Below, one piece after another: positions 6,131 to 19,161 of a DNA stretch of 24,785 nt. Within the stretch, counting starts at the first letter, position 1. Every line of letters starts with the position of its first letter. The DNA is from a virus. The position numbers and the translations under genes are program-made. A model generated the notes under the pieces. The model saw only the letters and a list, made by a program, of their open reading frames with translations, had not been told where the DNA came from and made no database searches. The stretch is taken from IMG/VR virus record IMGVR_UViG_3300028550_003281, positions 1-24,785 of that record. One strand, 5' to 3'.

Positions 6131-7978
6131 ATGCAAACAAAAAGAAAAACCCCACCTAAACGCTTTACAGGAAGCTCAAAGAAAAAATCCTACGGAATAG
6201 GCGGTGCCGTAATGACCCTAGGTAAAAACTTATTACAGGGAAAGAAATTTGGAGATGGGATGTTTGGGGGTGTGCTTAAAGCTGGTGTTACCCCAGGGAG
6301 TGGAGTGGGTGCTGGACTTGGGTTAGCAGGTGCTCTTGCTGGTAAGTCAAAGAACCCCGCACTCCAGAAATTAGGTACAGGCTTAGGTATGGCTGGTAAT
6401 GTAGCTGGTATGTTTACTGGTGGCGGTGGTGGTGGAGCCCTTCAGGGGTTAGCGGGTAAGTTTGCAGGAGGAGGCGGGGGAGCTGGTTTTCAAAACATAA
6501 TGCAAACCCTAGGTAAAGGCGCAGGCGGAGGCGGTATGAAAAACATCCTAGGCAGTTTACTTGGAAATACAACCGCAGCGGACGGAATGAAAGTGTATGC
6601 CTCTGGAGGTTCTATACCTCGCATGAAAGTTTTGAAAAGCATGGAGCACGGAGGCACACATGACGGAGAAGACAGCGCTGCTCCTGGATATGATTTTAGC
6701 TTACTACCTACATCAGTAATCCAAAATGCAGCTTCAGGTAGTTTTGAACCAAGAGTAACATCTGGAGGTATGACAAAAGCATCCGACCGCAATACCGTTA
6801 CTACAGAAGATGCAAGAGGCCAAGGCGCTGCGGCAGGCGAAGAAGGTTTTCAGCAGGCTCAAAACCCGTCAAATGTAGGTGCGTTTAATCTCACAACAGG
6901 AGATGGTCAAAGATTTGATCCGACGACAAGTTCGCTAGACAGCGACCTAAGCGAAGAGCAACTCCAGAATCTTTTAAGTGGTGACTTTGGCCAAAAGCAC
7001 TTAAGTGGAGAAGGATCTCTCGATGATCAGTACCGTGTATACACCGCTGATGTCAATAATTATTTTGAGGAACAAGGGCCAGAAAAAATGCTGGAGGAGG
7101 TTAAGCAAAATATAGCCAACGACCCTGAATACGCTAAACACTTTAAAAACGCTAATGAGGATGATTTCGTAAATATAGCTTTAACAAAGGCTACAGATAA
7201 GTTGATAGGTCCAGCTCATGGGTCTTTATACACTATGAAAAAATCTGCACCTATGACGGCAGGCTACACAAGTCGAGACTATATTACAACCGTAGGTAAT
7301 CCATGGCAAAAAAATGATGGAGGTGACGGAGAAGATCCAAGCTCTAACACTTTTATAGCTTCTGTTGGCAACAAAGCTGTTCATCCTGATCATATTATGG
7401 ATCTCTATAGGATTGCAGAGGCTAACAATATAGATGTTCAAAAAGATTCCCCAGAGACTAGAGATTTTATAGAATCATTTATTAAGAAAACGGGTAAGTC
7501 TATACTGCCTAATGAAATGGGAGCCTATGATGGTGTATTTAAAAATTACGGACAAAAGATAGAGAACATTCGGGCTAGAGCCATGCGTAATGGAGATAAA
7601 TCTCAAAGTCGACTTACGATGCAAGAGTTTATGGAAATGTACCCCGATCAGGTTTTTGATTCCAATGTCTCGTATGGGGAGCCGTCAGAAGGTCAAGGCT
7701 TGAGAAAGGAAGAGAATATGTCTATCATTAAGGAAGAGCAAAGACCAGCCTTCGTGGAGGAGTACTTTAAGAGTAAGGGTATAACTAACCCTACTCTGGA
7801 GGATAGAGAATCTGCAGATAGCGCATACGAAAAAAATCCTGACATGTTTGCCAAGGTGATAAAAGACCTCACCCCTCGTAATATGCCTAAGTTTGCTCAA
7901 GGAGGGAGAGTAAAACTCATGAAAAAAGGAGGAAGAAGCTACGGCGGAGGCGGCGCTCTATCAGCCCTTATGCGTTAG
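6131..7978 (+). CDS. Large glycine-rich virion-like protein (615 aa)
   Basis: Residues 20-150 are Gly/Ala/Leu-rich with several GGGGG runs and hydrophobic blocks (GAGLGLAGALAG, GTGLGMAGNVAGMF), a composition known from phage internal or membrane-active proteins. Residues about 152-180 contain GMKVYASGG, RMKVLKSMEHGG and THDGE. The middle (about 250-560) is a charged, soluble domain with no motif I recognise. The C-terminus returns to FAQGGRVKLMKKGGRSYG and a Gly tail. The K-x-M-K-x-GG motifs are shared with several other small proteins in this window. Role inferred as an internal or tail-associated virion protein. Its stop overlaps the stop of the convergent gene 7975-8502. Confidence 0.8.
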   Translation: MQTKRKTPPKRFTGSSKKKSYGIGGAVMTLGKNLLQGKKFGDGMFGGVLKAGVTPGSGVGAGLGLAGALAGKSKNPALQKLGTGLGMAGNVAGMFTGGGGGGALQGLAGKFAGGGGGAGFQNIMQTLGKGAGGGGMKNILGSLLGNTTAADGMKVYASGGSIPRMKVLKSMEHGGTHDGEDSAAPGYDFSLLPTSVIQNAASGSFEPRVTSGGMTKASDRNTVTTEDARGQGAAAGEEGFQQAQNPSNVGAFNLTTGDGQRFDPTTSSLDSDLSEEQLQNLLSGDFGQKHLSGEGSLDDQYRVYTADVNNYFEEQGPEKMLEEVKQNIANDPEYAKHFKNANEDDFVNIALTKATDKLIGPAHGSLYTMKKSAPMTAGYTSRDYITTVGNPWQKNDGGDGEDPSSNTFIASVGNKAVHPDHIMDLYRIAEANNIDVQKDSPETRDFIESFIKKTGKSILPNEMGAYDGVFKNYGQKIENIRARAMRNGDKSQSRLTMQEFMEMYPDQVFDSNVSYGEPSEGQGLRKEENMSIIKEEQRPAFVEEYFKSKGITNPTLEDRESADSAYEKNPDMFAKVIKDLTPRNMPKFAQGGRVKLMKKGGRSYGGGGALSALMR

Positions 7979-8502
7979 TTAGGATTCCAGCTTGCTGGTG
8001 GGTCAAATGAACAGCCCCCTGCGTAGTACGTAGTATTTTCGTCATCTATGCTAGCTTTTATTAAAACAAAGTCGTGATCGTAGTATACCTTACCTACATC
8101 GCCCAACCCCTTTGTTTCATCACCAACACGTATAACCGTATTGCCCATAAGTTTGCCAGTGGTTTTGTTTCTAGCCCCTATGTGGTATATACCCTTTCTG
8201 TATACAGAGAACCATAAAAGGAAGTTACCATCGTGCTTGTCCGTCTGTTCTCTATTAAGTGCAATCTCTCTGGCTATATAGTTATCCGTTAGGTACGGCT
8301 TGTCCTCAATAGGCATATCCCATCTGTAGCATCCACAGACGTTTTCAGGCTCTGCCCACACCTCCCACTCTACGTAGCTCTGATCAGCAGTAACCCAGCT
8401 GCAGTGACATTCATCAAAAGCTATCTGGAACCTTACAATTTCTTCTTGCGATAATATGCTTAACGATAATAAGCATGCAGTAAATAAAAATAAATTCTTC
8501 AT
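7975..8502 (-). CDS. Secreted hypothetical protein (175 aa) in reverse orientation
   Basis: Begins MKNLFLFTACLLSLSILSQ, a typical cleavable signal peptide (lysine, hydrophobic core, small residues near 18-20), followed by a Trp/Tyr/Asp-rich domain with four Cys in the first half (ECHC at 31-34, and CGC near 56-58) and one near the C-terminus. It should be exported and may be disulphide-bonded. Family not recognised. It runs against the surrounding late genes and is bounded by a convergent stop overlap on one side and a long non-coding leader on the other. This suggests an accessory (moron-type) gene that may be expressed separately. Confidence 0.7.
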   Translation of the reverse strand: MKNLFLFTACLLSLSILSQEEIVRFQIAFDECHCSWVTADQSYVEWEVWAEPENVCGCYRWDMPIEDKPYLTDNYIAREIALNREQTDKHDGNFLLWFSVYRKGIYHIGARNKTTGKLMGNTVIRVGDETKGLGDVGKVYYDHDFVLIKASIDDENTTYYAGGCSFDPPASWNPN

Positions 8503-8675: not shown

Positions 8676-9191
8676 ATGAAACTAGAAGTAATAAGGTTCA
8701 ACAAAGGGAAAGACTCAACTAACGGAATATTATTTGATATAACTAATGGTAAAAGAAAATTTTTATGCTATACTCTCGAAGATGAGAGCCGCACTGAAAA
8801 AGTGTGGGGAGAAACTTGCATACCTGAAGGAGAGTATGTTCTCGGTCTTCGGACTGTGGGGGGACATCATGCTAAGTACTCTAAAAGGTTTGCTGACATC
8901 CATATGGGGATGCTTCACGTACTGGATGTACCTAATTTTAAATATATTCTTATTCATTGCGGCAACACTGACGAGGATACTGCTGGTTGTCTGCTCTTGG
9001 GTGATTCGCAAGAAAACAACAACATCAAAGAAAACGGATTTATCGGACGATCTACCCAAGCCTACTTCCGAGTCTACGAAGACATCGCAAAAGCGGTCAA
9101 AGAAGAAGAGTCAACGATAACGTATAGAGATTTTGCGGACTGCCTATTGCTCTCCAAAGCTGATACAAATAAATTTTTTGGAAAATGCTAG
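8676..9191 (+). CDS. DUF5675-like protein, candidate cell-wall-active protein (171 aa)
   Basis: The core resembles the DUF5675 family found in phages and Bacteroidota: a strand LCYTLEDE, then IPEGEYVLGLRT, a histidine-containing loop, LHVLDVPNFKYILIHCGNT and DEDTAGCLLLGD. His94 and Cys105 in the IHxGN...DTxGC pattern recall the H...GC active-site spacing of L,D-transpeptidase-type domains; that link is my inference, not established. In phages such a gene could serve lysis or wall remodelling. The C-terminal 45 residues are helical and charged. A second, out-of-frame ORF lies entirely inside this gene. The stop overlaps the start of gene 9185-9694. Confidence 0.75.
   Translation: MKLEVIRFNKGKDSTNGILFDITNGKRKFLCYTLEDESRTEKVWGETCIPEGEYVLGLRTVGGHHAKYSKRFADIHMGMLHVLDVPNFKYILIHCGNTDEDTAGCLLLGDSQENNNIKENGFIGRSTQAYFRVYEDIAKAVKEEESTITYRDFADCLLLSKADTNKFFGKC
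8746..9120 (+). CDS. Embedded out-of-frame membrane protein, candidate holin (124 aa)
   Basis: Nested completely within the DUF5675-like gene in the +1 frame. Residues 1-45 are amphipathic and Lys/Met-rich; residues about 48-88 are strongly hydrophobic (TYWMYLILNIFLFIAATL then ILLVVCSWVI), enough for one or two transmembrane helices. Residues 89-124 form a very basic, Ser/Thr/Lys-rich cytoplasmic-type tail. This is the architecture of many phage holins, and overlapping lysis genes are known (for example lambda Rz/Rz1 and the phiX174 E gene in D). Evidence for translation is only the ORF length and composition; no ribosome site is evident. It could be a chance frame. Confidence 0.35.
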   Translation: MVKENFYAILSKMRAALKKCGEKLAYLKESMFSVFGLWGDIMLSTLKGLLTSIWGCFTYWMYLILNIFLFIAATLTRILLVVCSWVIRKKTTTSKKTDLSDDLPKPTSESTKTSQKRSKKKSQR

Positions 9192-9694
9192 GTTTAGGAC
9201 TAGGTGCAACAGAAGGAGGAGTAGTAGATGCTGGTGAAGCCTTATTTCAGTTAGTTTCAAGTGGAGGGTTTAGCACTGGGTCTTCTGACGATGAAAATGT
9301 AAAATTGCTTATGCCATTAGGCACCACAAGCAAGACGTTTGTTGGTATGGATGGTATCAATAACAATGCTATAATACCAGGTTTAACGGCAAGTGTAACG
9401 ATAACGCATAAATCTAAAGATACTGGCTCGGGGCTTGAAGCAATAGACCCCGTTGAAACAAGTACAGGAACTCTTAATTGCTACGATAACGGAGGCTTTA
9501 TAATCTTATCTCAAGCTAGCTCATCTACTGTTGCATCAAACTTTGCGCTAGACTTTACGGCGTCGCCATTTTCAGGTGTGGATGCAGTAGGAGACAACAA
9601 TCAGTATTCTGTAACGGTAAATAGCTTAAGTTTTTCGGGTGCAATTAGTCCTGCTGCTAGGACAACTGGCAATTTTAACGTAGACGCAAAATAG
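9185..9694 (+). CDS. Beta-rich structural protein (169 aa)
   Basis: Starts MLGLGLGATEGGVVDAGEAL, then a mostly beta-strand, Ser/Thr/Gly-rich protein with little charge (SVTITHKSKDTG, GGFIILSQASSS, NQYSVTVNSLSFSG). Composition and strand pattern are those of phage head-decoration, tail-tube or baseplate-type proteins; I cannot assign one. The Gly-rich N-terminus could form a flexible arm. Its start overlaps the stop of the DUF5675-like gene, so they are co-translated. It ends 7 nt from the convergent gene 9702-10124. Confidence 0.75.
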   Translation: MLGLGLGATEGGVVDAGEALFQLVSSGGFSTGSSDDENVKLLMPLGTTSKTFVGMDGINNNAIIPGLTASVTITHKSKDTGSGLEAIDPVETSTGTLNCYDNGGFIILSQASSSTVASNFALDFTASPFSGVDAVGDNNQYSVTVNSLSFSGAISPAARTTGNFNVDAK

Positions 9695-9701
9695 TTTTTG
9701 T

Positions 9702-10124
9702 TTAGCTTTCGAGCTCTCTATATACTCTCTGTACAAGAAGCCTGGCTTTCTGAGTCAAAGCATACCTAACCCTATAGTTGTATTTAGTTTCATCCCTAAA
9801 AAGATGATCCTCATATGTGTTAGAGGGTGTTAGCTTATCAAAATGTTTATATATGTAACCCTTATTAGCTAAAGGGTATATAAAGCGATTCTGCGTGTTG
9901 TTCTTATTCATCCCCATATCCTGTGAAGCAAAATCTATAGTAAAAAACTGAAGGTCGTAACCCCATAATAGAAACTCTACCTCTGAAAATGTTAGATCGG
10001 TATTTTTGTTTATATTACGTTTAACTTGTTTTAATCTCTTAAGATGGTTCCTTAAAATATATTTCTTATCTTGCAGAGCAAAGTCTCTGAAGAGGCGCTT
10101 TTTTGGAACTCTACTTTTAGGCAT
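9702..10124 (-). CDS. Winged-helix (MarR-like) DNA-binding protein (140 aa)
   Basis: A basic N-terminal helix (KKRLFRDFALQDKK, residues 7-20, and KRLKQVKRNINKN) is followed by LTFSEVEFLLWGYDLQFFTI, MNKNNTQNRFIYPLANKGYI, a wing-like segment with YNYRVRYALTQKARLLVQRV. That order (helix, recognition helix with N-R-x-x-x-L-x-x-K-G-Y, wing, LT-x-K-A-x long helix) is the MarR-type winged helix. A transcription regulator of the late genes is the obvious inference. It stands on the opposite strand, and its start is only 3 nt from the likely start of the divergent gene at 10128, so any promoter must lie inside coding sequence. Confidence 0.7.
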   Translation of the reverse strand: MPKSRVPKKRLFRDFALQDKKYILRNHLKRLKQVKRNINKNTDLTFSEVEFLLWGYDLQFFTIDFASQDMGMNKNNTQNRFIYPLANKGYIYKHFDKLTPSNTYEDHLFRDETKYNYRVRYALTQKARLLVQRVYRELES

Positions 10125-10127
10125 TTA

Positions 10128-10451
10128 ATGAATTTATTACGCAAAGATATGGAAGAAGAGGCTTTTTTCTTAGAAATACAGCGTTTATCTTTAGAGATAG
10201 ATGCGGTAGTAGACAAATACGACATGCGAGACAGGGTGGCGTCAATAATGATAACAGGGATAATGGATGAGGATTTTTTCGGTAACGTAAGACTAAAGGC
10301 TATATATAGCTATAGTCTGCAATCAAAGGAAGAGTTAGATAGTATAATGGATTTTGTAAATAGCACCTGGCACGAAGAGGAGATTAATAACATAGAAGGA
10401 TATAAAGATATAGACGATCTACTGGACGGAACAGGAATAGAATTAGAATAA
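10128..10451 (+). CDS. Hypothetical acidic late protein (107 aa)
   Basis: I prefer ATG at 10128 (MNLLRKDMEEEAFFLEIQRL), because an in-frame ATG at 10071 would overlap the divergent regulator by 54 nt; ATG at 10149 is also possible. The protein is acidic and mainly helical, with VVDKYDMRDRVASIMITGIM in the middle and a DDLLDGTGIELE tail. It looks like the small conserved protein often found ahead of packaging genes in Bacteroidota phages, but I cannot give a role. Two bases later the next gene starts. Confidence 0.7.
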   Translation: MNLLRKDMEEEAFFLEIQRLSLEIDAVVDKYDMRDRVASIMITGIMDEDFFGNVRLKAIYSYSLQSKEELDSIMDFVNSTWHEEEINNIEGYKDIDDLLDGTGIELE

Positions 10452-10452
10452 A

Positions 10453-10692
10453 ATGGAAGGACTTATTAGAAAAATCGTGGTCGGAAGAGACCCTAAAGAC
10501 GGTATGGCTTATTATATTGGTATGCGAGCAGGGGCGGGCAAGGTAAGCACCATTATACAGGATGATCGTCACCTGTCTAAATATGGAAAAAATAGATACC
10601 TTGTGTACATGGAGGATACTGAGGGGGCTCAGACTCTATGGAAAGCTATAGACGGAATGCCCTGTATGTTAGAATTTGATTGTAATTTTTGA
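10453..10692 (+). CDS. Small hypothetical protein (79 aa)
   Basis: MEGLIRKIVVGRDPKDGMAY, then IGMRAGAGKVSTIIQDDRHL and YLVYMEDTEGAQTLWKAIDG. Compact alpha/beta protein; the spacing of strands and an acidic/aromatic end suggest a single small domain. Function unknown, family not securely recognised. It is embedded in the run of conserved small genes (10128-11733) leading up to the packaging block, with A-rich start context AATAAAATGG and no Shine-Dalgarno. Confidence 0.75.
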   Translation: MEGLIRKIVVGRDPKDGMAYYIGMRAGAGKVSTIIQDDRHLSKYGKNRYLVYMEDTEGAQTLWKAIDGMPCMLEFDCNF

Positions 10693-10693
10693 T

Positions 10694-10873
10694 ATGAGCA
10701 AGAGCAAAGGACTAGGAGACACTATCGAGAAGCTAACGACTCGAACAAAGATAAAAGCCTTGGTTGAGGCCAATCGCAAGCGCAGAGGGAAGAAAGAATG
10801 CGGTTGCGCAAAACGCAAAGATAAATTAAATAAAATGTTCCCATATAAAGACTCTAAGAATGAAGACGTTTAA
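10694..10873 (+). CDS. Small CGC-motif phage protein (59 aa)
   Basis: Start taken at ATG 10694 (MSKSKGLGDTIEKLTTRTKI), 1 nt after the preceding stop; the upstream in-frame ATG at 10676 lies in the previous gene and lacks support. The pattern KGLGDTIEKxT...IK..VE, ECGCAKRKDKLNKMFPY is shared by small proteins I have seen in Bacteroidota phages. The CGC pair with basic flanks may bind metal or nucleic acid. Precise role unknown. It overlaps the GroES-like gene by 14 nt. Confidence 0.75.
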   Translation: MSKSKGLGDTIEKLTTRTKIKALVEANRKRRGKKECGCAKRKDKLNKMFPYKDSKNEDV

Positions 10874-11456
10874 TCTATTTGTGGTTAAGATAGACCATAG
10901 GCTTAAGGAAACGATAACCTCGGATAGCGGATTCGAGCTACATATAGACGCAAGGTTTAACGACTTTGACAATCGAACTACGGAAGGCCCCGTTGTGTGT
11001 GTGCCTTTTAAGTTTGATACAGGGGTGGAAGAGGGGGACACCTTGTACTTCCATCACCTAGTAGTTTTAGGTGGAGATAATAACGGTCAGATTTTTACAG
11101 AAGAAGACAACACCTATATCGTTACTTACGATCCAAACAACGCAATTGGAAATCAAGCTATAGCATATAAAAGCCAGAAAGACGGGAAGATACGATGTCT
11201 AGCTGGATGGTGCCTATTGAAGTCTGTAGAACAGGAGGAGCTAAAGCTTCAGTCCAGCCTTATAGAGATAGTGGACCTAAAGGAATCTTTACCCACAAAG
11301 GGTGAGGTTGCCTATACATGTAAAGAGGCTGATGATCAGGGGGTTGTGCCTGGGGACGTTGTAGGGTTTAAGCAGAACAGAGATTACCGTATAACTATAG
11401 ATGGGACAGAGTATTACCGAACCCGCGCAGAAGATTTAATGTATGTCGAAAACTGA
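10860..11456 (+). CDS. GroES-like co-chaperonin with two barrels (198 aa)
   Basis: The C-terminal domain (about 144-198) shows the GroES ending clearly: KGEVAYTCKEADDQGVVPGD, VVGFKQNRDYRITIDGTEYY and RTRAEDLMYVEN, matching the GroES scheme G-x-V-V..., V-K-x-G-D-x-V-x-F, I-D-G-x-E-Y, R-E-x-D-I. The N-terminal domain (about 1-120) repeats it loosely: FVVKIDHRLKETI, TEGPVVCVPFKFDTGVEEGD and KIRCLAGWCLLKSVE. It is about twice the length of GroES, so a tandem-barrel phage co-chaperonin is likely, working with host GroEL to fold capsid proteins, as T4 gp31 does. No GroEL gene is present. Overlaps the next gene by 14 nt. Confidence 0.7.
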   Translation: MKTFNLFVVKIDHRLKETITSDSGFELHIDARFNDFDNRTTEGPVVCVPFKFDTGVEEGDTLYFHHLVVLGGDNNGQIFTEEDNTYIVTYDPNNAIGNQAIAYKSQKDGKIRCLAGWCLLKSVEQEELKLQSSLIEIVDLKESLPTKGEVAYTCKEADDQGVVPGDVVGFKQNRDYRITIDGTEYYRTRAEDLMYVEN

Positions 11457-11733
11457 ATTTAGCACCATAGGGGCTTCCAGAAGGCTTATGTCTAGCATGG
11501 AGATAGCTATAGATAATATGATCGAAGAGATTAAAAAGCCTGTAGACCCTGAGATTAACGGTAGCGCCCGTAAGGCTGAGTTACAGTCCATTAAGCAAAC
11601 AGCAACAGACTGTAAAGAGCTCATTATAGAAAGGCAGAGGTTGGCACAAATGGTTAAGGACCTTGAGTCTAGCGGAGATATAAAAGATATAAAAGACTAC
11701 AGTGGCGGGTTTGCCGAAAGGTTTTCGAAATGA
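11443..11733 (+). CDS. Small helical protein, possible packaging accessory (96 aa)
   Basis: MSKTEFSTIGASRRLMSSME, followed by long helices (MEIAIDNMIEEIKK, AELQSIKQTATDCKELIIERQRLAQM) and a C-terminal KDYSGGFAERFSK. Helical and charged with a conserved-looking aromatic tail. Its place shortly before the HNH and terminase genes would suit a small terminase subunit or a packaging accessory, but I see no helix-turn-helix, so I leave the function open. Confidence 0.7.
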   Translation: MSKTEFSTIGASRRLMSSMEIAIDNMIEEIKKPVDPEINGSARKAELQSIKQTATDCKELIIERQRLAQMVKDLESSGDIKDIKDYSGGFAERFSK

Positions 11734-12200
11734 TACAATGTAGGAGCTGCCAAAGACTAAAGGATGAAGAGGATTTCTACCTAAGAGCCGACGGTATTAA
11801 AAGATTTAATAAATGTAAGTCCTGCATATCAAAAGAAACGGCTGATCAAAAGCGCGATATTTATAAATGGGTAGATACCTATAAAGCTTCCCAAGGGTGT
11901 GGCCATTGCGGAATAAAAGATGAAAGATGTTTGCAGCTTCACCATAGGGACTCCTCCACGAAAAAACATAGTGTAGCAACCCTTATAGGTAAGGGGTATA
12001 TCTTCAGGACGGTAAAGGAGGAGGTGGAGAAGTGTGATGTTTTATGCGCTAACTGCCACTCTATACATCATTATGAGGACAGAAGATCAGGAGACTGGGG
12101 GGCTGGCAGGTATGATTACGAAACCGATGATAGTGAGTGTTCTCCAATAGTAGAACAATTAGAGCTCTTCCTTAATCGTGAGGAGGGGTTGGGAATATAA
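11730..12200 (+). CDS. HNH endonuclease with N-terminal zinc ribbon (156 aa)
   Basis: Residues 4-32 form a four-Cys zinc ribbon (C4, C7, C29, C32). The HNH fold follows: GCGHC (C57, C60), LQLHHRD (H71, H72), and VLCANCHSIHHYEDR (C106, C109, H110, H113, H114), which supplies the two CxxC zinc pairs and the catalytic His. HNH genes beside terminase are common in tailed phages, where the nuclease may assist packaging-motor cleavage; a free-standing homing-type nuclease is the alternative. Start overlaps the previous stop as ATGA. It ends 2 nt before a promoter box. Confidence 0.85.
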   Translation: MIQCRSCQRLKDEEDFYLRADGIKRFNKCKSCISKETADQKRDIYKWVDTYKASQGCGHCGIKDERCLQLHHRDSSTKKHSVATLIGKGYIFRTVKEEVEKCDVLCANCHSIHHYEDRRSGDWGAGRYDYETDDSECSPIVEQLELFLNREEGLGI

Positions 12201-12202
12201 CG

Positions 12203-12210
12203 TATATTTG
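12203..12210 (+). promoter_or_regulatory. -7 box TATATTTG 4 nt before the cargo gene start
   Basis: TATATTTG followed by CTAT and the ATG at 12215: the same box and spacing as at 4759-4766. It sits in the 14-nt gap between the HNH stop and the cargo cassette, and would give a leaderless transcript of the two exported-protein genes, independent of the upstream operon. Confidence 0.55.
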
Positions 12211-12214
12211 CTAT

Positions 12215-12583
12215 ATGAAACATCTTTTTACATTTTTTATATTAGCTCTTACCCTAGGGTCGGCTTCAGCCCAGTGCAACCAGCATGTATTTACCTCCGT
12301 GGGCGCAGAAAAATGGACTAATTTTCAGTATCAAGATTGCGACGGTGAGGCTCATTACTTCGGTCTTCCAGCTGGAGGATACACTATAATATACTGCGCA
12401 GACATAGGGACCGCCTTTGTCCTAAACGGGGATGGATTTGTATACCCGCTTCTTACGGAACACCCTAATTATGCTTCATGCGTACAAGAGGAGTCGTGCC
12501 CAGGAGACTTAGATAATAGTGGGGTGGTAGACGTTCAGGATTTATTGTTATTTTTAGAAAACTACGGGCTACCATGCGACTAA
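12215..12583 (+). CDS. Exported protein with C-terminal dockerin-like EF-hand (122 aa)
   Basis: Signal peptide MKHLFTFFILALTLGSASA with likely cleavage before QC. The mature part has six Cys. The C-terminal 28 residues read CPGDLDNSGVVDVQDLLLF then LENYGLPCD: one calcium-loop repeat with ligands D98, D100, S102, D106 and D109, flanked by Cys, as in single dockerin-type repeats of marine Bacteroidota exported proteins. The middle (GEAHYFGLPAGGYTIIYCAD) is beta-rich. An exported calcium-stabilised surface or periplasmic protein is inferred. It overlaps the next gene by 10 nt, so the two are probably made together and may interact. Confidence 0.75.
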   Translation: MKHLFTFFILALTLGSASAQCNQHVFTSVGAEKWTNFQYQDCDGEAHYFGLPAGGYTIIYCADIGTAFVLNGDGFVYPLLTEHPNYASCVQEESCPGDLDNSGVVDVQDLLLFLENYGLPCD

Positions 12584-13773
12584 ATTTCTTTCACATAATA
12601 TGGCTTCTATATAGCGTTTTTGTATTTAACAACTCTGCATACGGCCAGTGCGACGTAGCTATAAGTAGCTGGGACGCTATAACAGGGGATATTGTTATAG
12701 AGGCTATTAACAGCGAGAACTGCGGTTGCAATGAATTTACAACTGAAGGTAACACGTGTGAGAATACCGCTAGTACGCACGTAAATAACAACACCACGGT
12801 ATCTCATATAGTTTTAGGGTTGCATGTAGAAGGGTTGGATTATAATTGGTTGGATTGTTTGACTGGAGTTAATCACCCAGGATGGACATTTAAAGTGTTT
12901 ACTCTTTATGGGAATCAGGTATTAGATAGTGGGGATACTTGGAGTGCTAATGTTTATGATACAGGGGCAAGTACAAGTGATTGTTGGACTGAGGTATTAG
13001 CTAACGATACGCTATGTACTGAGTTAGTTGTATGGCAAATTAATCTATCTCGCACAGCTTTTATAGATGATGGTGGTTGGGCGGTAAATCCAGGGTTTAA
13101 CCAAACACAGAACTACCCTGACGTAGATCTTTCTAATAACACTGCTGTAAACTGTGCCCCACCTGCCTGCGATACGGTGTATGTAGACGTTATTGAATAT
13201 GTGGACGTTATTGAGTACGTAGATGTTATTGAGTACATTACAGATACACTTTACATAGATGTTGAGTGGGTGACGACAGACACACTATACATCACAGAAA
13301 CGGACACATTAATAGAGTATGTCCAATTACCACCAGATACTTTATATGAGTATATCTACTTAACTGATACTATGTATGTAGAGACGGTTGTATATGAGTA
13401 TCTATACGTTTATGAAACAGACACTATAACTGAGTTTGTATCTGAATCTATTTATATAGACTGTGAAACGGGGGAGCAATGTGCAGACGAATTTCCATGC
13501 GATGAAACTTCAATTTTTGCCCCAAATGCAGTAACCCCCAATGGGGACGGATGGAATGACACATGGACGGTTGTTTCAAATGGGGCTTGTTGGGATCAAT
13601 GGGAGACTCGCATTTACAACAGATGGGGTGGCCTTGTATGGATAAGTGCCTCTTCTTTAGATGAATGGGATGCAAACGTTGCAACGGGAACATATGTTTA
13701 CACAATAACTGCACACAGCGCTATAAACGCAAGTGTTTTTGAGTTCAATGGAACAATAACTGTACTATATTAA
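12574..13773 (+). CDS. Exported protein with CHU_C (type B) C-terminal sorting domain (399 aa)
   Basis: Signal peptide at residues 1-24 (IIWLLYSVFVFNN core, cleavage before QC). Residues 25-200 are a Cys/Trp/Asn-rich beta domain (HIVLGLHVEGLDYNWLDC, NHPGWTFKVFTLYGNQVL). Residues about 205-295 are a low-complexity linker of DTLY and YVDVIE repeats. Residues 318-399 are a clear gliding-motility-associated C-terminal domain: AVTPNGDGWNDTWTV, RIYNRWGGLVWISAS, EWDANVATGTYVYTITAH and FNGTITVLY. In Bacteroidota this domain directs export by the type IX system and attachment at or release from the cell surface. A phage gene with it would use host secretion, so surface modification, superinfection exclusion or a virion-borne adhesin are options. 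Confidence 0.85.
   Translation: MRLNFFHIIWLLYSVFVFNNSAYGQCDVAISSWDAITGDIVIEAINSENCGCNEFTTEGNTCENTASTHVNNNTTVSHIVLGLHVEGLDYNWLDCLTGVNHPGWTFKVFTLYGNQVLDSGDTWSANVYDTGASTSDCWTEVLANDTLCTELVVWQINLSRTAFIDDGGWAVNPGFNQTQNYPDVDLSNNTAVNCAPPACDTVYVDVIEYVDVIEYVDVIEYITDTLYIDVEWVTTDTLYITETDTLIEYVQLPPDTLYEYIYLTDTMYVETVVYEYLYVYETDTITEFVSESIYIDCETGEQCADEFPCDETSIFAPNAVTPNGDGWNDTWTVVSNGACWDQWETRIYNRWGGLVWISASSLDEWDANVATGTYVYTITAHSAINASVFEFNGTITVLY
13180..13233 (+). repeat. Three tandem 18-nt repeats coding YVDVIE
   Basis: Three successive 18-nt units encode YVDVIE three times and differ mainly at third codon positions. They open a longer linker with repeated DTLY, DTMY and DTIT units. Tandem copies like these can expand or contract between relatives. 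Confidence 0.8.
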
Positions 13774-13777
13774 CTCT

Positions 13778-14026
13778 ATGCAATTAAAAAAAAGAGACTA
13801 TAAAAAAGAGTACAGAAAATTTCAATCTACTCCTGCGCAAAAAAAAAACCGAGCTGGAAGGAACCTTCGTAGAAGAAGATTTCTTAAGATGGGGTTGGTT
13901 AAAAAAGGGGACGGCATGGATATACACCACAAAGGAAATAGAGTTAAAGTAATGAAGGCGTCTAAAAATAGAGGCATAGCAGAGAAGTCAAGACTAAAAG
14001 GATCTAAACGTAAAAAAATTAAATAA
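13778..14026 (+). CDS. Small basic protein with KGDGxxxHHK motif (82 aa)
   Basis: Very Lys/Arg-rich (MQLKKRDYKKEYRKFQST, RNLRRRRFLKMGLVKKGD). The conserved core KKGDGMDIHHKGNRVKVM followed by KASKNRGIAEKSRLKGSKRK is found in small phage proteins that resemble a reduced HNH (HH plus N) fold. Here the zinc cysteines are missing, so nuclease activity is doubtful and a DNA-coating or packaging-associated role is more likely. It contains the VKVMK motif also seen in other proteins of this window. It follows the cargo cassette by 4 nt. Confidence 0.75.
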   Translation: MQLKKRDYKKEYRKFQSTPAQKKNRAGRNLRRRRFLKMGLVKKGDGMDIHHKGNRVKVMKASKNRGIAEKSRLKGSKRKKIK

Positions 14027-14027
14027 A

Positions 14028-14216
14028 ATGGCAGAGTATAAATGTGATTGCAACGACGAAGTTATAGACAAGTCAGGTGTAACAATAAAGTACATTGAAG
14101 GCGAAGGAGTAATACATGACGTAAAATGTAAAGGCTGTGACAAGTACATGGAGCTGGCTAACCCTAAGTCTGGGGCTCCTGGATTTAGATCCAATAGATT
14201 TGGACAAACATTTTGA
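14028..14216 (+). CDS. Small zinc-ribbon-like protein (62 aa)
   Basis: CxC at residues 6 and 8 and CxxC at 34 and 37 (YKCDCNDEVIDKSGVTIKYI then DVKCKGCDKYMEL) form a four-Cys metal site typical of small zinc ribbons. The C-terminus is basic and Gly/Pro-rich (GAPGFRSNRFGQTF). Placed directly before the terminase, it may be an accessory to packaging, but this rests on position alone. The stop overlaps the terminase TTG start. Confidence 0.7.
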   Translation: MAEYKCDCNDEVIDKSGVTIKYIEGEGVIHDVKCKGCDKYMELANPKSGAPGFRSNRFGQTF

Positions 14217-16327
14217 ACGTCCTCTTAGATGTTGAAGAGTATGATACCCCTGCTGTTAAGATTTGCCCCAACGGTACGGAGGGTGAAATTATTGAACTCG
14301 GTGGGCTACTCATTTGCCTTCCTAAAAGGCCGCCGAAGAAAGACATTCTCGGATATAAAAAATCAAACGCTTTGCAAGTGTGGCGAAGGATACCTCTGCA
14401 GAAGGAGCTGTCTCGTATTCGCTCTATGGATGAGTGGGAGGAGATGCCAAGGGAGTTTAGATCGAGGTTTCGTCCATATATCGAGGAAGAGTTTCGGCGT
14501 AGGCGTGAGGGCTTTTGGTTTTATAATAACAACACAGCTACATATATTACGGGGAGGCACTACATGATGCTACAATGGACAAAGCTTGATATAGGCTATC
14601 CATTTTTCTTAAATTTTCAAAGAGACATATTTTTACATATGGCTGCCTGTGAGATAGACCCTAGATGTATAGGCCAGCTATATACTAAATGTCGTCGTAG
14701 CGGATACACTAATATATGTTCAGCCGTGCTTGTGGACGAAGCTACACAGGTAAAGGATAAGCTTATGGGGATACAGTCTAAGACTGGTAAAGATGCCCAG
14801 GAAAATATTTTTATGAAGAAGGTGGTTTATATGTTTAGAAACTACCCATTCTTCTTTAAACCTATTCAGGACGGAACAACTAACCCGCGTATGGAGCTAG
14901 CTTTTCGGGAACCGTCGAAAAGAATCACCAAGAAAAACAAAACCTCTCAAATGGGGGAGGCTTTGAATACGGTTATCAATTGGAAAAACACAACAAACAA
15001 TGCATATGACGGTGAAAAATTACACCTGTTATATTTAGACGAAGCAGGAAAATGGGAAAGACCTACAGACATAAGGGACGCTTGGAGGATTCAAAGGACG
15101 TGTTTGATCGTCGGAAGGAAAATCGTGGGAAAAGCATTAGTCGGAAGCACAGTAAATCCGATGGACAAAGGAGGGAAGCAATACAAAGATCTATGGAAGG
15201 ATTCGGATCCTCTGGAAAGGAACGCGAATGGTAGGACCGTAAGCGGATTGTATAGGCTGTTTATACCAGCCCAAGAATCTCTAGAAGGGTTTTTTGATAT
15301 CCACGGACTTCCAGTTATAGACACTCCCGACACCCCAATAGAGGGTGTAGATGGGGACGATGTTATTATAGGATCTAAAAGGTATCTTAAAAATGAGAGG
15401 GAGTCTCTAAAACACGACCCATCTGAATTAAACGAGGTAACAAGGCAGTTCCCTTTTACTGAGGATGAGGCTTTTAGGGATAGCATTGAGGGCAGCCTAT
15501 TTAATATCGGCAAGATATATCAGCAAATAGAATATAACGATGAGCTCTTCCCCAATCCTGTAATTAAAGGCAACTTTATATGGAAGGAAAAGGATAAGGA
15601 GGTTGTATTTAGCCCTGACGTTAATGGTAGGTTTAGGGTTGCGTGGATGCCCCCTAACGAACAGCGTAACGTTATAAAGAACGACAGAGGTAAGAAAGTA
15701 GCCCCATTTGCGGACAGGGGTTGCGGGGGAGTTGACTCCTATGATCTTGACGCCACCCTGGACGGGAGAGGCTCAAAAGGAGCTCTACACCTCTACAATA
15801 AGTTTCATATAGAGAATCCATCTAATATGTTTGTAATAGAGTACGCTTCACGTCCAGACCTTGCTAAGATATTCTACGAGGACGTTTTAATGGCAGCTTT
15901 TTTTTACGGGTATCCTCTTCTTGTGGAGAATAATAAATATGGTATAGTAAGATACTTTGAGTCAAGGGGTTACGACGGGTACTTAATGGATAGGCCAGAA
16001 CACCTTAAGGGGTCTTCGGCTACCGTAAAGGTGAAGACTAAGGGTATCCCCTCAAACTCTCAGGACGTAATCCAGGCACATGCCCATTCTATTGAGGCTT
16101 ATATACACGATCATGTAGGTATAAATTATGACTCAGGGGATATGGGTAAGATGTATTTCAACAATACAATGGAAGACTGGATAGGATTTAAAATAGATAA
16201 AAGAACAAAATTTGACTTAACGATTAGCTCGGGGTTAGCGCTTTTGGCGGCACAGAAATCTAAGCCCAAAGCTGTAACTGATTTTACTGAACGCAAGTTC
16301 TTTAGGAGATATCAAGTAATCGGTTGA
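14213..16327 (+). CDS. terL: Terminase large subunit (DNA-packaging ATPase and nuclease, 704 aa)
   Basis: ATPase motifs: a Walker-A-like KCRRSGYTN at residues 159-167 (arginine-rich variant used by many Bacteroidota phage terminases), Walker B HLLYLDEAGKWE at 271-282, and the coupling motif VGSTVNP at 310-316. Nuclease domain: GVDSYDLDATLDG (D508) and YPLLVENNKYG (E572), the RNase-H-like acidic residues, with a C-terminal Asp/His region (SQDVIQAHAHSIEAYIHD). It cuts and translocates genome DNA into the prohead through the portal encoded next. The start is TTG at 14213: an in-frame stop lies 18 nt upstream, and the first in-frame ATG is near residue 72, which would drop the N-terminal segment. 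A TAGATTTG box lies at 14195-14202. Confidence 0.93.
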   Translation: MNVLLDVEEYDTPAVKICPNGTEGEIIELGGLLICLPKRPPKKDILGYKKSNALQVWRRIPLQKELSRIRSMDEWEEMPREFRSRFRPYIEEEFRRRREGFWFYNNNTATYITGRHYMMLQWTKLDIGYPFFLNFQRDIFLHMAACEIDPRCIGQLYTKCRRSGYTNICSAVLVDEATQVKDKLMGIQSKTGKDAQENIFMKKVVYMFRNYPFFFKPIQDGTTNPRMELAFREPSKRITKKNKTSQMGEALNTVINWKNTTNNAYDGEKLHLLYLDEAGKWERPTDIRDAWRIQRTCLIVGRKIVGKALVGSTVNPMDKGGKQYKDLWKDSDPLERNANGRTVSGLYRLFIPAQESLEGFFDIHGLPVIDTPDTPIEGVDGDDVIIGSKRYLKNERESLKHDPSELNEVTRQFPFTEDEAFRDSIEGSLFNIGKIYQQIEYNDELFPNPVIKGNFIWKEKDKEVVFSPDVNGRFRVAWMPPNEQRNVIKNDRGKKVAPFADRGCGGVDSYDLDATLDGRGSKGALHLYNKFHIENPSNMFVIEYASRPDLAKIFYEDVLMAAFFYGYPLLVENNKYGIVRYFESRGYDGYLMDRPEHLKGSSATVKVKTKGIPSNSQDVIQAHAHSIEAYIHDHVGINYDSGDMGKMYFNNTMEDWIGFKIDKRTKFDLTISSGLALLAAQKSKPKAVTDFTERKFFRRYQVIG

Positions 16328-16332
16328 TTCAC

Positions 16333-16340
16333 TATATTTG
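16333..16340 (+). promoter_or_regulatory. -7 box TATATTTG just ahead of the portal gene
   Basis: TATATTTG ends 6 nt before the ATG at 16347, in the gap after the terminase stop. It matches TAnnTTTG and again predicts a transcript starting at or beside the start codon. The box also contains a TTG that could be mistaken for the portal start codon. Confidence 0.5.
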
Positions 16341-16346
16341 CATAAT

Positions 16347-18749
16347 ATGAACGACGACGTAAACAAAAAGGGCGGCTTTCCCGACCCATTGGCAGACCAG
16401 CAAATAAAAGAGTCCGATTCATATGGACTCCAGTATGCGAAGGCTATTTATTCCCAGTGGGGAAAGATGAACGAGAGTTCTTCCCTCTTAGGGAAAAGAA
16501 ATAAAATATTTGAAAGGAATAGAGATTATGCTAACGGCGTGCAGGATACAAGCATATACAAGCAGTTGCTAAACTCTTTATCTCCAAATAAAGGCGATGG
16601 GAGTCTTCTTAATTTAGATTACACCCCAGTACCTATTTTACCCAAGTTTGTAAAAATTGTTGTAAATAAAATACTTTCTAGGGACCCCTACCCTAATCTG
16701 GAATCCATAGATCCTCTTTCCTCTTCTGAAAAGAATAAGAAAAAGGATAAGATAAAAATGCAAGTAGAAGCAAAGGAACTGCTTCGTTCGCTGAAAGAAA
16801 AAACAGGGGTTGTTTTAGACATGGACCCTGATGCTATTCCCGATACTTTAGAGGAGGCGGAAATTTTTATGGATACAAATATAAAAACCGACGCAGAGAT
16901 AGCCGCACAGATAGGTACAAACATGACCTTAGCCTGGAGTAACTTCTCGGACACAACGTACAGGAGAGCCGTTAACGACCTTGTTGCGCTTGGTATGTCT
17001 GTTGTCAAAAGAAAGAACGATCCAAATAAAGGCATAGCTCTTGAGTATGTGGATCCTGTGTCTTTTGTGCATAGCCACACCGACGACCCTAATTTTGAAG
17101 ACGTAGTGTACGCTGGCGACGTTAAGCGTATGCCAATACAGGAATTAAAAAGACTGTCAGGAGATCAGTTTACTGAAGAAGAATTTAAAAAGATAGCCGA
17201 AAAATCTAAGAACAATAAAGGGAACAATTCGGGTAACCTTACTAAATCCCACTATGACGATCGTTTGCAGAAAACTAGCTACGGGTACGATGAGTACATG
17301 GTTGATGTGTTAGACTTTGAATTTGTGTCTGTGGATTCTATGCACTTTGAGGAGAAGGAAAGCCAACACGGAAACAAAGGTTTTTATTACAAAGGGTTTG
17401 AATATAAAGACAAACCAGGCAGTGTATTTGAACGAACTCCGCATAAGATGGAGATGGCTATTGTCTATGGGGGGAGCTATATCTTAGGTACCGATCATAT
17501 ATTCGGGTACGGCAGGCAAAAAAACGTACCTAAAAACATTCACGATATATCGAAGGCTAGACTGTCTTACTCTATGTCCGCAACCAATATGAGGCGCATG
17601 ATGCCTAAGTCTATGGTTGAGAGCTGCACGGGGTTTGCGGATATGCTTCAGCTTACACATTTAAAACTCCAGCAGGCCATAGCAAAAGCTAAGCCAGATG
17701 GGTTGGTTATAGATATTGAGGGGCTGGAAAATGTGCAACTCGGAAAAGGAGGCGAGTTACAGCCGCTCGAACTTCATGATATATACGAGCAGACTGGAGT
17801 TTTCTATTACAGGAGCAAAAACCCAGAAGGGGGCTTTCAAAACCCACCAGTTAGGGAGATAGGAAATACAATAAGAAATATCAATGAGCTGATTGGGTTG
17901 TACAATCATTACATGCAACTCATACGCGACACAACAGGAATAAACGAAGCTATGGATGCTTCGTCTCCAAAAGGTAATGCTCTTGTTGGGGTTCAGCAAC
18001 AGGCTATTGCGGCTGGAAACAACGCTATATACGACATAACTAACGCGTCTATGATGCTATTTAAAAGGGTTTGTCAGGATGTGGTTAAGTGCTTACAGAT
18101 ACTCCCCGAGGAGTCTGTGTTATACAAAATATACACTAACGCCATAGGAGAAGAAAACATGAATGTTCTTTCTTCATTTAAAGATTTATCCATGTACAAC
18201 TTTGGCGTACATGTCGTTAAGGAAATGGAGGACGAGGATAGGCAGTTTCTGGAACAAAACATACAGATGGCGCTGCAGCAGCAACAGATAGATTTAGAGG
18301 ACGCTATGTCGGTTAGAGCTTTGAAGGATGTCAACCAAGCTGAGAGGTTGTTGATAATACGAAGAAAGAAAAGAATGAATGAGCAGCAGCTAATGGCTCA
18401 GCAGAACTCCGAGCAGCAGGCTCAACAAGCTGCACAGGCTTCACAGCAGGCTTCTGAAGCTCGCATGCAGGAGTTACAGGCGGGGGCTGAGATTTCCCAA
18501 CAGGAGATTCAATTAAAGGCTCAATTAGAAATGCAGTTGGCTCAAATGAAACATGAGTTTAACAAAGAAATTGAAACTATTAGGGCTCAGGCTACGCTAG
18601 GCTTCAAGGAAGACGACCAGAACTTCAAGGAGAAGTTAGATGTACTTAAAGAGACTAAAAAAGACGAACGCCAGGAAGCTCAAGGAGCTCAGCAAATGGC
18701 TATGAAACAAATGGATCAGCAGCCCGATGAACAACAACAAATGATTTAA
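16347..18749 (+). CDS. Portal protein (800 aa)
   Basis: Large protein directly after terminase with portal features: an N-terminal alpha domain (QYAKAIYSQWGKMNESS...RDYANG), a stem-like region (LPKFVKIVVNKILSRDPYP, VNDLVALGMSVVKRKNDPNK, LEYVDPVSFVHSHT), a beta/crown region (YMVDVLDFEFVSVDS) and the long helical part (NMRRMMPKSMVESC...IRNINELIGLYNHY, INEAMDASSPKGNALVGVQ) typical of large portals. Residues about 675-800 are a Gln/Ala-rich coiled coil. It forms the dodecameric ring through which DNA enters. I use ATG 16347, since an in-frame TTG at 16338 lies inside the promoter box. Confidence 0.88.
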   Translation: MNDDVNKKGGFPDPLADQQIKESDSYGLQYAKAIYSQWGKMNESSSLLGKRNKIFERNRDYANGVQDTSIYKQLLNSLSPNKGDGSLLNLDYTPVPILPKFVKIVVNKILSRDPYPNLESIDPLSSSEKNKKKDKIKMQVEAKELLRSLKEKTGVVLDMDPDAIPDTLEEAEIFMDTNIKTDAEIAAQIGTNMTLAWSNFSDTTYRRAVNDLVALGMSVVKRKNDPNKGIALEYVDPVSFVHSHTDDPNFEDVVYAGDVKRMPIQELKRLSGDQFTEEEFKKIAEKSKNNKGNNSGNLTKSHYDDRLQKTSYGYDEYMVDVLDFEFVSVDSMHFEEKESQHGNKGFYYKGFEYKDKPGSVFERTPHKMEMAIVYGGSYILGTDHIFGYGRQKNVPKNIHDISKARLSYSMSATNMRRMMPKSMVESCTGFADMLQLTHLKLQQAIAKAKPDGLVIDIEGLENVQLGKGGELQPLELHDIYEQTGVFYYRSKNPEGGFQNPPVREIGNTIRNINELIGLYNHYMQLIRDTTGINEAMDASSPKGNALVGVQQQAIAAGNNAIYDITNASMMLFKRVCQDVVKCLQILPEESVLYKIYTNAIGEENMNVLSSFKDLSMYNFGVHVVKEMEDEDRQFLEQNIQMALQQQQIDLEDAMSVRALKDVNQAERLLIIRRKKRMNEQQLMAQQNSEQQAQQAAQASQQASEARMQELQAGAEISQQEIQLKAQLEMQLAQMKHEFNKEIETIRAQATLGFKEDDQNFKEKLDVLKETKKDERQEAQGAQQMAMKQMDQQPDEQQQMI

Positions 18750-18750
18750 T

Positions 18751-19161
18751 ATGGCAAATAAAGTTAACTTAGACACATCTGAGCGGCTAGATATAACATG
18801 TCGCCAAGGCGACACTTTCTCCCTTACTGTTACTCTTAAGGATTCTGCGGGGACAGCAATTGCGCTGTCAACATTAAAGTATTCCTTTTTAATGCAGGTC
18901 TGGGGAAGCAACTCTGCCGAGCCTGTCATAGGTTCTCCAAATCTTGGGAAAAGCGTGAAGAAGAGTTTTGAGGCTTTTGTAGTTGATGATAGTGGTAATG
19001 TTACCATTTCCGCAACCGCCGCAACAATGAAAGATATTTCTTCAGGCGTCTACATATATGATCTTATGTCAATTTTGCCATCTTCTACCGTTGCAGATAC
19101 CCACACAACTATACTAAGAGGTAATTTTACAATCAACCCAGATATATCTAAATCTTTGTAA
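18751..19161 (+). CDS. Beta-rich structural protein, tail/baseplate type (136 aa)
   Basis: SERLDITCRQGDTFSLTVTL, KDSAGTAIALSTLKYSFLMQ and GVYIYDLMSILPSS followed by HTTILRGNFTINPD form a strand-rich domain seen in small phage surface proteins (bottom-up: GDTF-S-L-x-V-T-L-K-D and GxYxYDL). It resembles immunoglobulin- or baseplate-upper-protein-like N-terminal domains, but exact membership is uncertain. Starts 1 nt after the portal stop and continues the head/tail operon. Confidence 0.75.
   Translation: MANKVNLDTSERLDITCRQGDTFSLTVTLKDSAGTAIALSTLKYSFLMQVWGSNSAEPVIGSPNLGKSVKKSFEAFVVDDSGNVTISATAATMKDISSGVYIYDLMSILPSSTVADTHTTILRGNFTINPDISKSL

What the first reader, a model, noticed from the sequence alone, without database searches (positions are those of the whole stretch)
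12203..13773. Promoter-equipped cargo cassette encoding a dockerin-like protein and a CHU_C/type IX sorted protein
Two overlapping genes with signal peptides, their own -7 box, inserted between the HNH and packaging genes. One ends in a calcium-binding dockerin-type loop, the other in the Bacteroidota gliding-type C-terminal sorting domain preceded by a DTLY/YVDVIE linker. Type IX export signals are a host cell-envelope trait; their presence on a phage implies that it uses the host secretion system to place proteins on the surface, perhaps for superinfection exclusion, altered gliding, or adhesion of infected cells.
Basis: partly seen in the sequence, partly recalled or inferred. Interest (0 to 1): 0.78.

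Follow-up and report, generated by a model that had tools for sequence, protein, structure and literature searches.

The report
Phage cassette for Bacteroidota surface export
A marine crAss-like phage carries an inserted pair of genes for secreted proteins, one with the C-terminal tag that Bacteroidota use for type IX secretion to the cell surface; the pair recurs in unrelated phages and almost nowhere else, so phages probably use the host's own secretion machine to change the surface of infected cells.

Summary
Window 12215-12583 (DOC) and 12574-13773 (CHUC) overlap by 10 nt, both start with signal-peptide-like sequences, and TATATTTG lies exactly 12 nt before the DOC start. CHUC ends in a CHU_C domain (Pfam 55.6 bits, cut-off 27) whose model superposes on solved type IX substrate domains (Z 9.2). 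DOC ends in one dockerin-like Ca2+ loop-helix, not a full dockerin. It is not a chimaera: a relative lacks exactly this 1.6 kb insert, and 60 IMG/VR contigs from 45 samples carry DOC, 59 with a CHU_C gene beside it (the other ends at the contig edge). The pair occurs in crAss-like and in T4-like phages, is under purifying selection, and had one hit among 84,980 prokaryote genomes, on a probably mis-binned phage contig. It is an accessory, horizontally moving phage cassette. Type IX cargo on phages was noted in 2019 and 2020 without a tested function; the dedicated type B pair appears new. Most likely CHUC is exported by Sec and the host T9SS and held on the infected cell's surface, with DOC as exported partner. 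What it does there (receptor masking or superinfection exclusion is the leading guess) is inference.

The parts
12203..12210 (+). TATATTTG, a Bacteroidota -7 box (TAnnTTTG) 12 nt before the DOC ATG, predicting a leaderless mRNA
   Evidence: TAnnTTTG spans -12 to -5 of the start site in Flavobacterium psychrophilum (PMC9723704)
12215..12583 (+). DOC gene, 122 aa: signal peptide (about 12215-12271), conserved Cys-bearing core (12272-12484), one dockerin/EF-hand-like loop-helix (12497-12580)
12574..13773 (+). CHUC gene, 399 aa, secreted type B T9SS substrate
12574..12645 (+). CHUC signal peptide (residues 1-24)
   Evidence: helix 2-21 in the model; mature start QCD conserved
12646..13161 (+). CHUC head domain (residues 25-196), beta-rich, conserved cysteines, diversified between phages
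13162..13482 (+). CHUC linker (residues 197-303), DTLY/EYVDVI repeats, low model confidence, variable length
13492..13770 (+). CHU_C / type B T9SS sorting domain (residues 307-399)
12176..13777 (+). extent of the insertion relative to the empty site in L139
   Evidence: L139 aligns to window 9714-12175 and 13778-18757 with about 12 bases between
11730..12200 (+). HNH endonuclease gene just upstream, also present without the cassette in L139, L140 and L150
14213..16327 (+). terminase large subunit (context), crAss-type PHROG 6681
16338..18749 (+). portal protein (context), PHROG 6547

Best explanation
A phage-dedicated accessory cassette of two exported proteins. The host RNA polymerase probably reads it from a leaderless TAnnTTTG promoter, of the class also found before structural genes of this phage clade. 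Both proteins pass the inner membrane by Sec. CHUC is then recognised by the host type IX secretion system through its type B C-terminal domain and held on the outer surface by a host PorP/SprF-like shuttle, its head standing off on a DTLY-repeat stalk. DOC lacks a sorting domain; it probably works bound to CHUC, or in the periplasm. The exposed head most likely blocks or remodels surface structures that virions adsorb to, which would keep other phages off and spare the progeny from binding debris. Shown: gene structure, domains, CTD fold similarity, pairing, insertion, transfer between phage lineages, purifying selection. Inferred: export, anchoring, the DOC-CHUC contact and the benefit.
For: CHU_C in 39/39 relatives and TIGR04131 in 39/39; CTD model matches NucA, RemA, RemZ and RgpB substrate domains, best Z 9.2 at 1.8 A over 72 residues. 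Beside DOC a CHU_C gene in 59 of 60 contigs, the exception ending at the contig edge, in three gene orders. Natural empty site; only 5 of 42 near relatives by terminase carry it. DOC 71-74% identical between crAss-type and large T4-like contigs. Median dN/dS 0.08 for DOC and 0.10 for the head. One hit in the scan of 84,980 genomes, a contig in a MAG that also holds two crAss-type terminases. Type B CTDs anchor passenger proteins at the surface through PorP/SprF-like shuttles (PMC12618676, PMC9143113); phage-exposed Flavobacterium columnare become resistant by gld/spr mutations (PMC9233685), so the T9SS-dependent surface matters for infection in that host.
Against: No experiment. Host unknown, and that it has a T9SS is assumed. 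No PorP/SprF gene found in the phages, but the control was silent too, so the search is inconclusive. TIGR04131 score of the window protein is 0.6 bits under the cut-off. The DOC-CHUC contact rests on linkage and a weak correlation (r 0.27-0.37 with the head, none with the CTD, 16 sequences); the DOC model is poor (pLDDT 54). Divergent heads coexist with ordinary DOC. Promoters shared with structural genes suggest late expression, whereas exclusion is often early.
Confidence: 0.5

Rival explanations
1. Adhesion or niche factor: the displayed CHUC/DOC pair makes infected cells stick to particles or to each other, or supplies an extracellular activity to the host during a long infection, with no role in exclusion.
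For: Related cassettes carry secreted M43 metallopeptidases: adjacent to CHUC in L042 and L077, fused to the same head plus CHU_C in L073-L075. Many clade members also carry a large type A T9SS protein. Published phage T9SS cargo includes an endoglucanase and a glycoside hydrolase (PMC7468147).
Against: DOC and CHUC have no recognised catalytic or carbohydrate-binding domain.
Confidence: 0.25
2. Virion proteins: the CHU_C domain serves only as an Ig-like decoration or tail-fibre module and the proteins are part of the particle.
For: In the window clade the genes sit beside the terminase and portal; the CTD is an Ig-like beta sandwich.
Against: Both proteins have signal-peptide-like N-termini and conserved cysteines. 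The match is to T9SS-specific sequence models in 39/39 members. In L065 the CHU_C gene lies near dCMP deaminase, MazG and NT5C genes, not structural genes. Only 5 of 42 near relatives have the cassette, odd for a structural part.
Confidence: 0.1
3. Lysis or envelope-weakening device: the exported pair helps open the outer membrane at the end of infection.
For: In one lineage (L005, L017, L020, L039) the DUF5675 gene lies between DOC and CHUC; promoter class shared with structural genes.
Against: DUF5675 has no established lytic function in the tools used; in other lineages the pair is not next to it; the cassette is absent from most near relatives, which must also lyse.
Confidence: 0.1
4. Passive host-gene pick-up without a phage function, or a contig chimaera.
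For: Type B sorting domains are a host trait; HNH endonuclease nearby.
Against: Strong purifying selection, recurrence in 45 samples, no host homologue beyond one phage-like contig, matching contig L001 at 98.5% and a clean empty site.
Confidence: 0.05

Closest known systems
T9SS type B cargo of Bacteroidota (SprB-type substrates; PF13585 / TIGR04131)
   Same: Sec signal, long repetitive stalk, C-terminal type B domain of the same sequence family and Ig-like fold
   Different: Encoded by phages, head domain without Pfam match, no PorP/SprF gene adjacent, paired with DOC
Cryophage T9SS type A cargo genes (PMC7468147, Nat Commun 2020)
   Same: Phage-encoded T9SS cargo, accessory; the authors also suggested superinfection or competition roles
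   Different: Type A domains on enzymes that vary between strains; here a type B protein and a dedicated partner kept as a pair
T9SS sorting-domain proteins upstream of head genes in crAss-BACON phage cluster 2 (PMC6949934, Viruses 2019)
   Same: Phage lineages near crAssphage, near head genes, T9SS sorting domains
   Different: BACON domains; no DOC/CHUC pair described
A0A7S9STS8, gliding motility-associated C-terminal domain protein of Virus NIOZ-UU157
   Same: 38% identity in a full-length Foldseek alignment with CHUC, evidently the same family
   Different: A database entry; its partner gene and context were not examined here
Type I dockerins of cellulosomes (e.g. 2y3n_B)
   Same: Ca2+ loop-helix signature, profile E 1.4e-4
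   Different: Single instead of duplicated loop-helix; no cohesin recognised
Phage receptor-blocking envelope proteins such as T5 Llp (from general knowledge)
   Same: Would share the logic of an exported phage protein that protects cell and progeny from adsorption
   Different: Llp is an outer-membrane lipoprotein; here T9SS cargo, and blocking is not shown

Membership tests
T9SS type B cargo protein | C-terminal CHU_C / TIGR04131 domain | tested here: met
   PF13585 55.6 bits over cut-off 27; TIGR04131 34.4 against 35, E 1.8e-8; 39/39 relatives hit both
T9SS type B cargo protein | Ig-like CTD fold as in solved T9SS substrates | tested here: met
   pLDDT 80-88 over the CTD; Z 9.2, 1.8 A, 72 residues against NucA CTD 8glk_D; RemA, RemZ and RgpB CTDs also listed. 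These solved CTDs are type A
T9SS type B cargo protein | Sec signal peptide | tested here: inconclusive
   Hydrophobic N-terminus and helix 2-21, conserved mature start QCD; no dedicated predictor available
T9SS type B cargo protein | Cognate PorP/SprF-like shuttle | tested here: inconclusive
   No PF11751 match in 23 related virus records, but no control genome rang either; orphan type B substrates that share a shuttle are known (PMC12618676)
T9SS type B cargo protein | T9SS-dependent secretion | not testable with these tools
   Needs expression in wild type and sprA mutant
Dockerin | Two tandem Ca2+ loop-helix repeats | tested here: not met
   One loop-helix in DOC
Dockerin | Pfam Dockerin_1 match over cut-off | tested here: not met
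   6 of 36 members, best E 0.094
Dockerin | EF-hand-like Ca2+ loop | tested here: met
   DLDNSGVVDVQD with D98 and D109 invariant in 36 relatives; profile match to 2y3n_B E 1.4e-4
crAss-like phage (context) | Terminase and portal of the crAss type | tested here: met
   phrog_6681 E 1e-198, phrog_6547 E 3e-188; best cultured matches are Flavobacterium, Cellulophaga and Azobacteroides phages; placing these in Crassvirales is from general knowledge
Superinfection exclusion system | Expression blocks adsorption or entry of phages | not testable with these tools
   Needs plating and adsorption assays

The most novel reading that the evidence does not exclude
The cassette is a two-part surface display device made by phages: CHUC is a T9SS-exported stalked scaffold and DOC (or, in other phages, an M43 peptidase with a DOC-like tail) plugs into it through a dockerin-like Ca2+ module, so that phages can swap effectors on an infected cell's surface, a viral analogue of scaffold-dockerin assembly.
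Probability: 0.15. Interest if true: 0.85.

Novelty: new variant of a known kind. Interest (0 to 1): 0.58.

Why it matters
If CHUC is displayed by the host T9SS, marine Bacteroidota phages of unrelated types share a mobile gene pair that remodels the outside of the infected cell with the host's own export machine. That gives a concrete route to test how such phages control adsorption, competition or attachment, in hosts where T9SS and gliding genes are already known sites of phage resistance. It also turns scattered notes on phage T9SS cargo into a defined family with a partner gene, an empty site and a testable promoter.

Tried and rejected
Chimaera with host DNA: rejected. Host origin: genome scan gave one contig, in a MAG labelled Pseudomonadales that also holds two crAss-type terminases, so most likely a binned phage contig; the scan used short exact peptide patterns, so distant host relatives could be missed. 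Cultured phages: DOC has no credible match, CHUC only CTD-level matches in two uncultured huge-phage records; plasmids only CTD-level matches. Defence library: none. DOC model too poor to search. Fold search with the whole CHUC model was filled by the CTD; the head fold is undecided (Foldseek matches to RbmA not significant) and no fold was found for it. Cohesin similarity of the head: not listed, not excluded. Shuttle search inconclusive. Literature searches on phages with CHU_C, T9SS and crAss-like terms gave only the two precedents named; a search with the name NIOZ-UU157 gave two papers that were not read further.

Full report
What is there. The window is a 24,785-base virus record with a crAss-type terminase and portal (PHROG 6681 and 6547). 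Its closest cultured relatives by terminase infect Flavobacterium and Cellulophaga. Between an HNH endonuclease gene (11730-12200) and the small genes before the terminase lie two genes that overlap by 10 nt: DOC (12215-12583, 122 aa) and CHUC (12574-13773, 399 aa). Their N-termini are two of the three most hydrophobic of the window.

Domains. CHUC consists of a signal peptide, a beta-rich head with conserved cysteines, a DTLY/EYVDVI-repeat linker of very low model confidence, and a well modelled C-terminal domain. The last is CHU_C (PF13585, 55.6 bits, cut-off 27); TIGR04131 scores 34.4 against a cut-off of 35. Of 39 relatives scanned singly, 39 hit both models. VIA-align puts the T9SS substrate NucA CTD first (8glk_D, Z 9.2, rmsd 1.8, 72 residues), with RemA, RemZ and RgpB CTDs also listed. 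These solved domains are type A, so this shows the fold, while the sequence models show the type B identity. DOC has a strongly conserved core and ends in one EF-hand-like loop plus helix (D98 and D109 invariant in 36 relatives). Its profile finds a cellulosomal dockerin (2y3n_B, E 1.4e-4), but a full dockerin has two such repeats and Pfam Dockerin_1 is not reached.

A phage family. A scan of IMG/VR with CHUC gave 79 loci, and one with DOC gave 60 contigs from 45 samples. A CHU_C gene lies beside DOC in 59 of the 60; the last contig ends just after DOC. The order varies: DOC-CHUC, DOC-DUF5675-CHUC, and CHUC-DOC in 35-199 kb contigs. Some carriers have crAss-type terminases, while others have T4-like baseplate wedge proteins (phrog_219, gp25). 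DOC proteins stay 71-74% identical to the window's even in the large CHUC-DOC contigs, which lack the crAss-type terminase, so the pair has moved between unrelated phages. Outside viruses, 84,980 prokaryote genomes gave one contig, in a MAG that also contains two crAss-type terminases.

An insertion, not a chimaera. L001 matches the window at 98.5% across both junctions. L139, with a 92% identical terminase and a 78% identical HNH protein, aligns to window 9714-12175 and 13778-18757 with about 12 bases between: a natural empty site for a 1.6 kb insert. Among 42 near relatives by terminase with at least 2.5 kb upstream, 5 carry a CHU_C gene there. The cassette is thus accessory. The same slot can hold other genes, such as a GroEL-like chaperonin in L196 and another CHU_C protein with a different head in L195.

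Promoter. TATATTTG starts 12 nt before the DOC ATG; TAnnTTTG sits at the same distance in L003, L008 and L024-L027. Over 1029 distinct upstream regions of this clade TAnnTTTG occurs 38 times at exactly -12 against about 2.4 per other position, also before portal genes, the small gene before the terminase, and two type A T9SS genes. In F. psychrophilum this box spans -12 to -5 of the start site (PMC9723704), so these mRNAs should be leaderless. In L139 a TAACTTTG at the end of HNH precedes the packaging genes, while the window has the cassette's own box instead (sequences). My inference is that the cassette is transcribed with the packaging genes.

Selection and modularity. Median dN/dS is 0.08 for mature DOC, 0.06 for its core, 0.10 for the head and 0.20 for the CTD; many other pairs are saturated at synonymous sites. 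Among 16 crAss-type members head and CTD distances are uncorrelated (r -0.17), DOC distances correlate weakly with the head (0.27-0.37, p 0.02-0.04) and not with the CTD. Two divergent head types, homologous by profile comparison, sit on the same linker and CTD. In L042 the gene beside CHUC encodes an M43 peptidase that keeps a DOC-like start and dockerin-like tail; in L077 the neighbouring M43 protein has two such loops; in L073-L075 the peptidase is fused to the head and CHU_C. This hints that DOC-like tails and CHUC work together, but it is not a binding test.

How it probably works. Type B CTDs are exported by the T9SS with PorP/SprF-like shuttles and suffice to anchor passenger proteins at the surface (PMC12618676, PMC9143113). 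By that rule CHUC should stand on the outside of the infected cell. DOC, with a signal peptide and no sorting domain, should reach the periplasm, or the surface only if bound to CHUC. In Flavobacterium columnare, resistance to phage arises through mutations in gld and spr genes of gliding and the T9SS (PMC9233685), so the T9SS-dependent surface matters for infection there. A phage protein placed on that surface could block it. I rank receptor masking or superinfection exclusion first, adhesion or extracellular activity second, with lysis aid and virion part lower. None of these was tested.

What is known already. Phage T9SS cargo was reported in crAss-BACON phage relatives (PMC6949934) and in Cryophage (type A, variable enzymes, PMC7468147). 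BFVD holds a CHUC relative from Virus NIOZ-UU157 (38% identity). In this clade type A sorting proteins are common: 16 of 45 records, and 6 of the 7 records of 50 kb or more, the seventh having CHU_C; two outgroup phages have neither. New here are the dedicated type B pair, its near-restriction to phages, its spread over unrelated phage types, and the empty site. I file it as a new variant of a known kind.

Noticed in passing
window 8746-9120 (+), inside DUF5675 8676-9191: A +1-frame ORF of 124 aa with a hydrophobic stretch lies within the DUF5675 gene and stays open in most homologues; it is longer than synonymous-codon shuffles allow (window p 0.005, most homologues under 0.03; homologues are not independent). 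Candidate overlapping, perhaps holin-like gene.
   Followed up: partly
window 4759, 12203, 16333 and 1029 upstream regions of related loci: TAnnTTTG is enriched at exactly 12 nt before ATG, which predicts a class of leaderless mRNAs in this crAss-like clade.
   Followed up: yes
L141 8240-10468, L144 11170-13383, L175 11288-13288, L156 11169-13658: Large secreted proteins (about 670-830 aa) with type A T9SS sorting domains downstream of the portal gene are common in the clade.
   Followed up: partly
window 7975-8502 (-); L144 1734-2255 (-): Another small protein with a signal-peptide-like start on the opposite strand beside DUF5675, similar in L144; no family match.
   Followed up: no
window 9185-9694; L144 2942-3679; L162 2150-2968; L178 141-1256: The slot after DUF5675 holds hypervariable genes, in relatives with Laminin_G_3 (ConA-like lectin) domains: a possible receptor-binding diversity spot.
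   Followed up: partly
L196 4450-5997: A chaperonin (Cpn60/GroEL) gene occupies the same slot before the terminase.
   Followed up: no
L042 8692-10011, L073 1035-3890, L077 7674-9680: M43 (pappalysin-type) metallopeptidases beside or fused to CHUC-type proteins in other phage contigs.
   Followed up: partly
L081 (WLWP01000006.1): A contig filed under a Pseudomonadales MAG carries the pair; the same MAG has two crAss-type terminases and is probably contaminated with phage contigs.
   Followed up: partly
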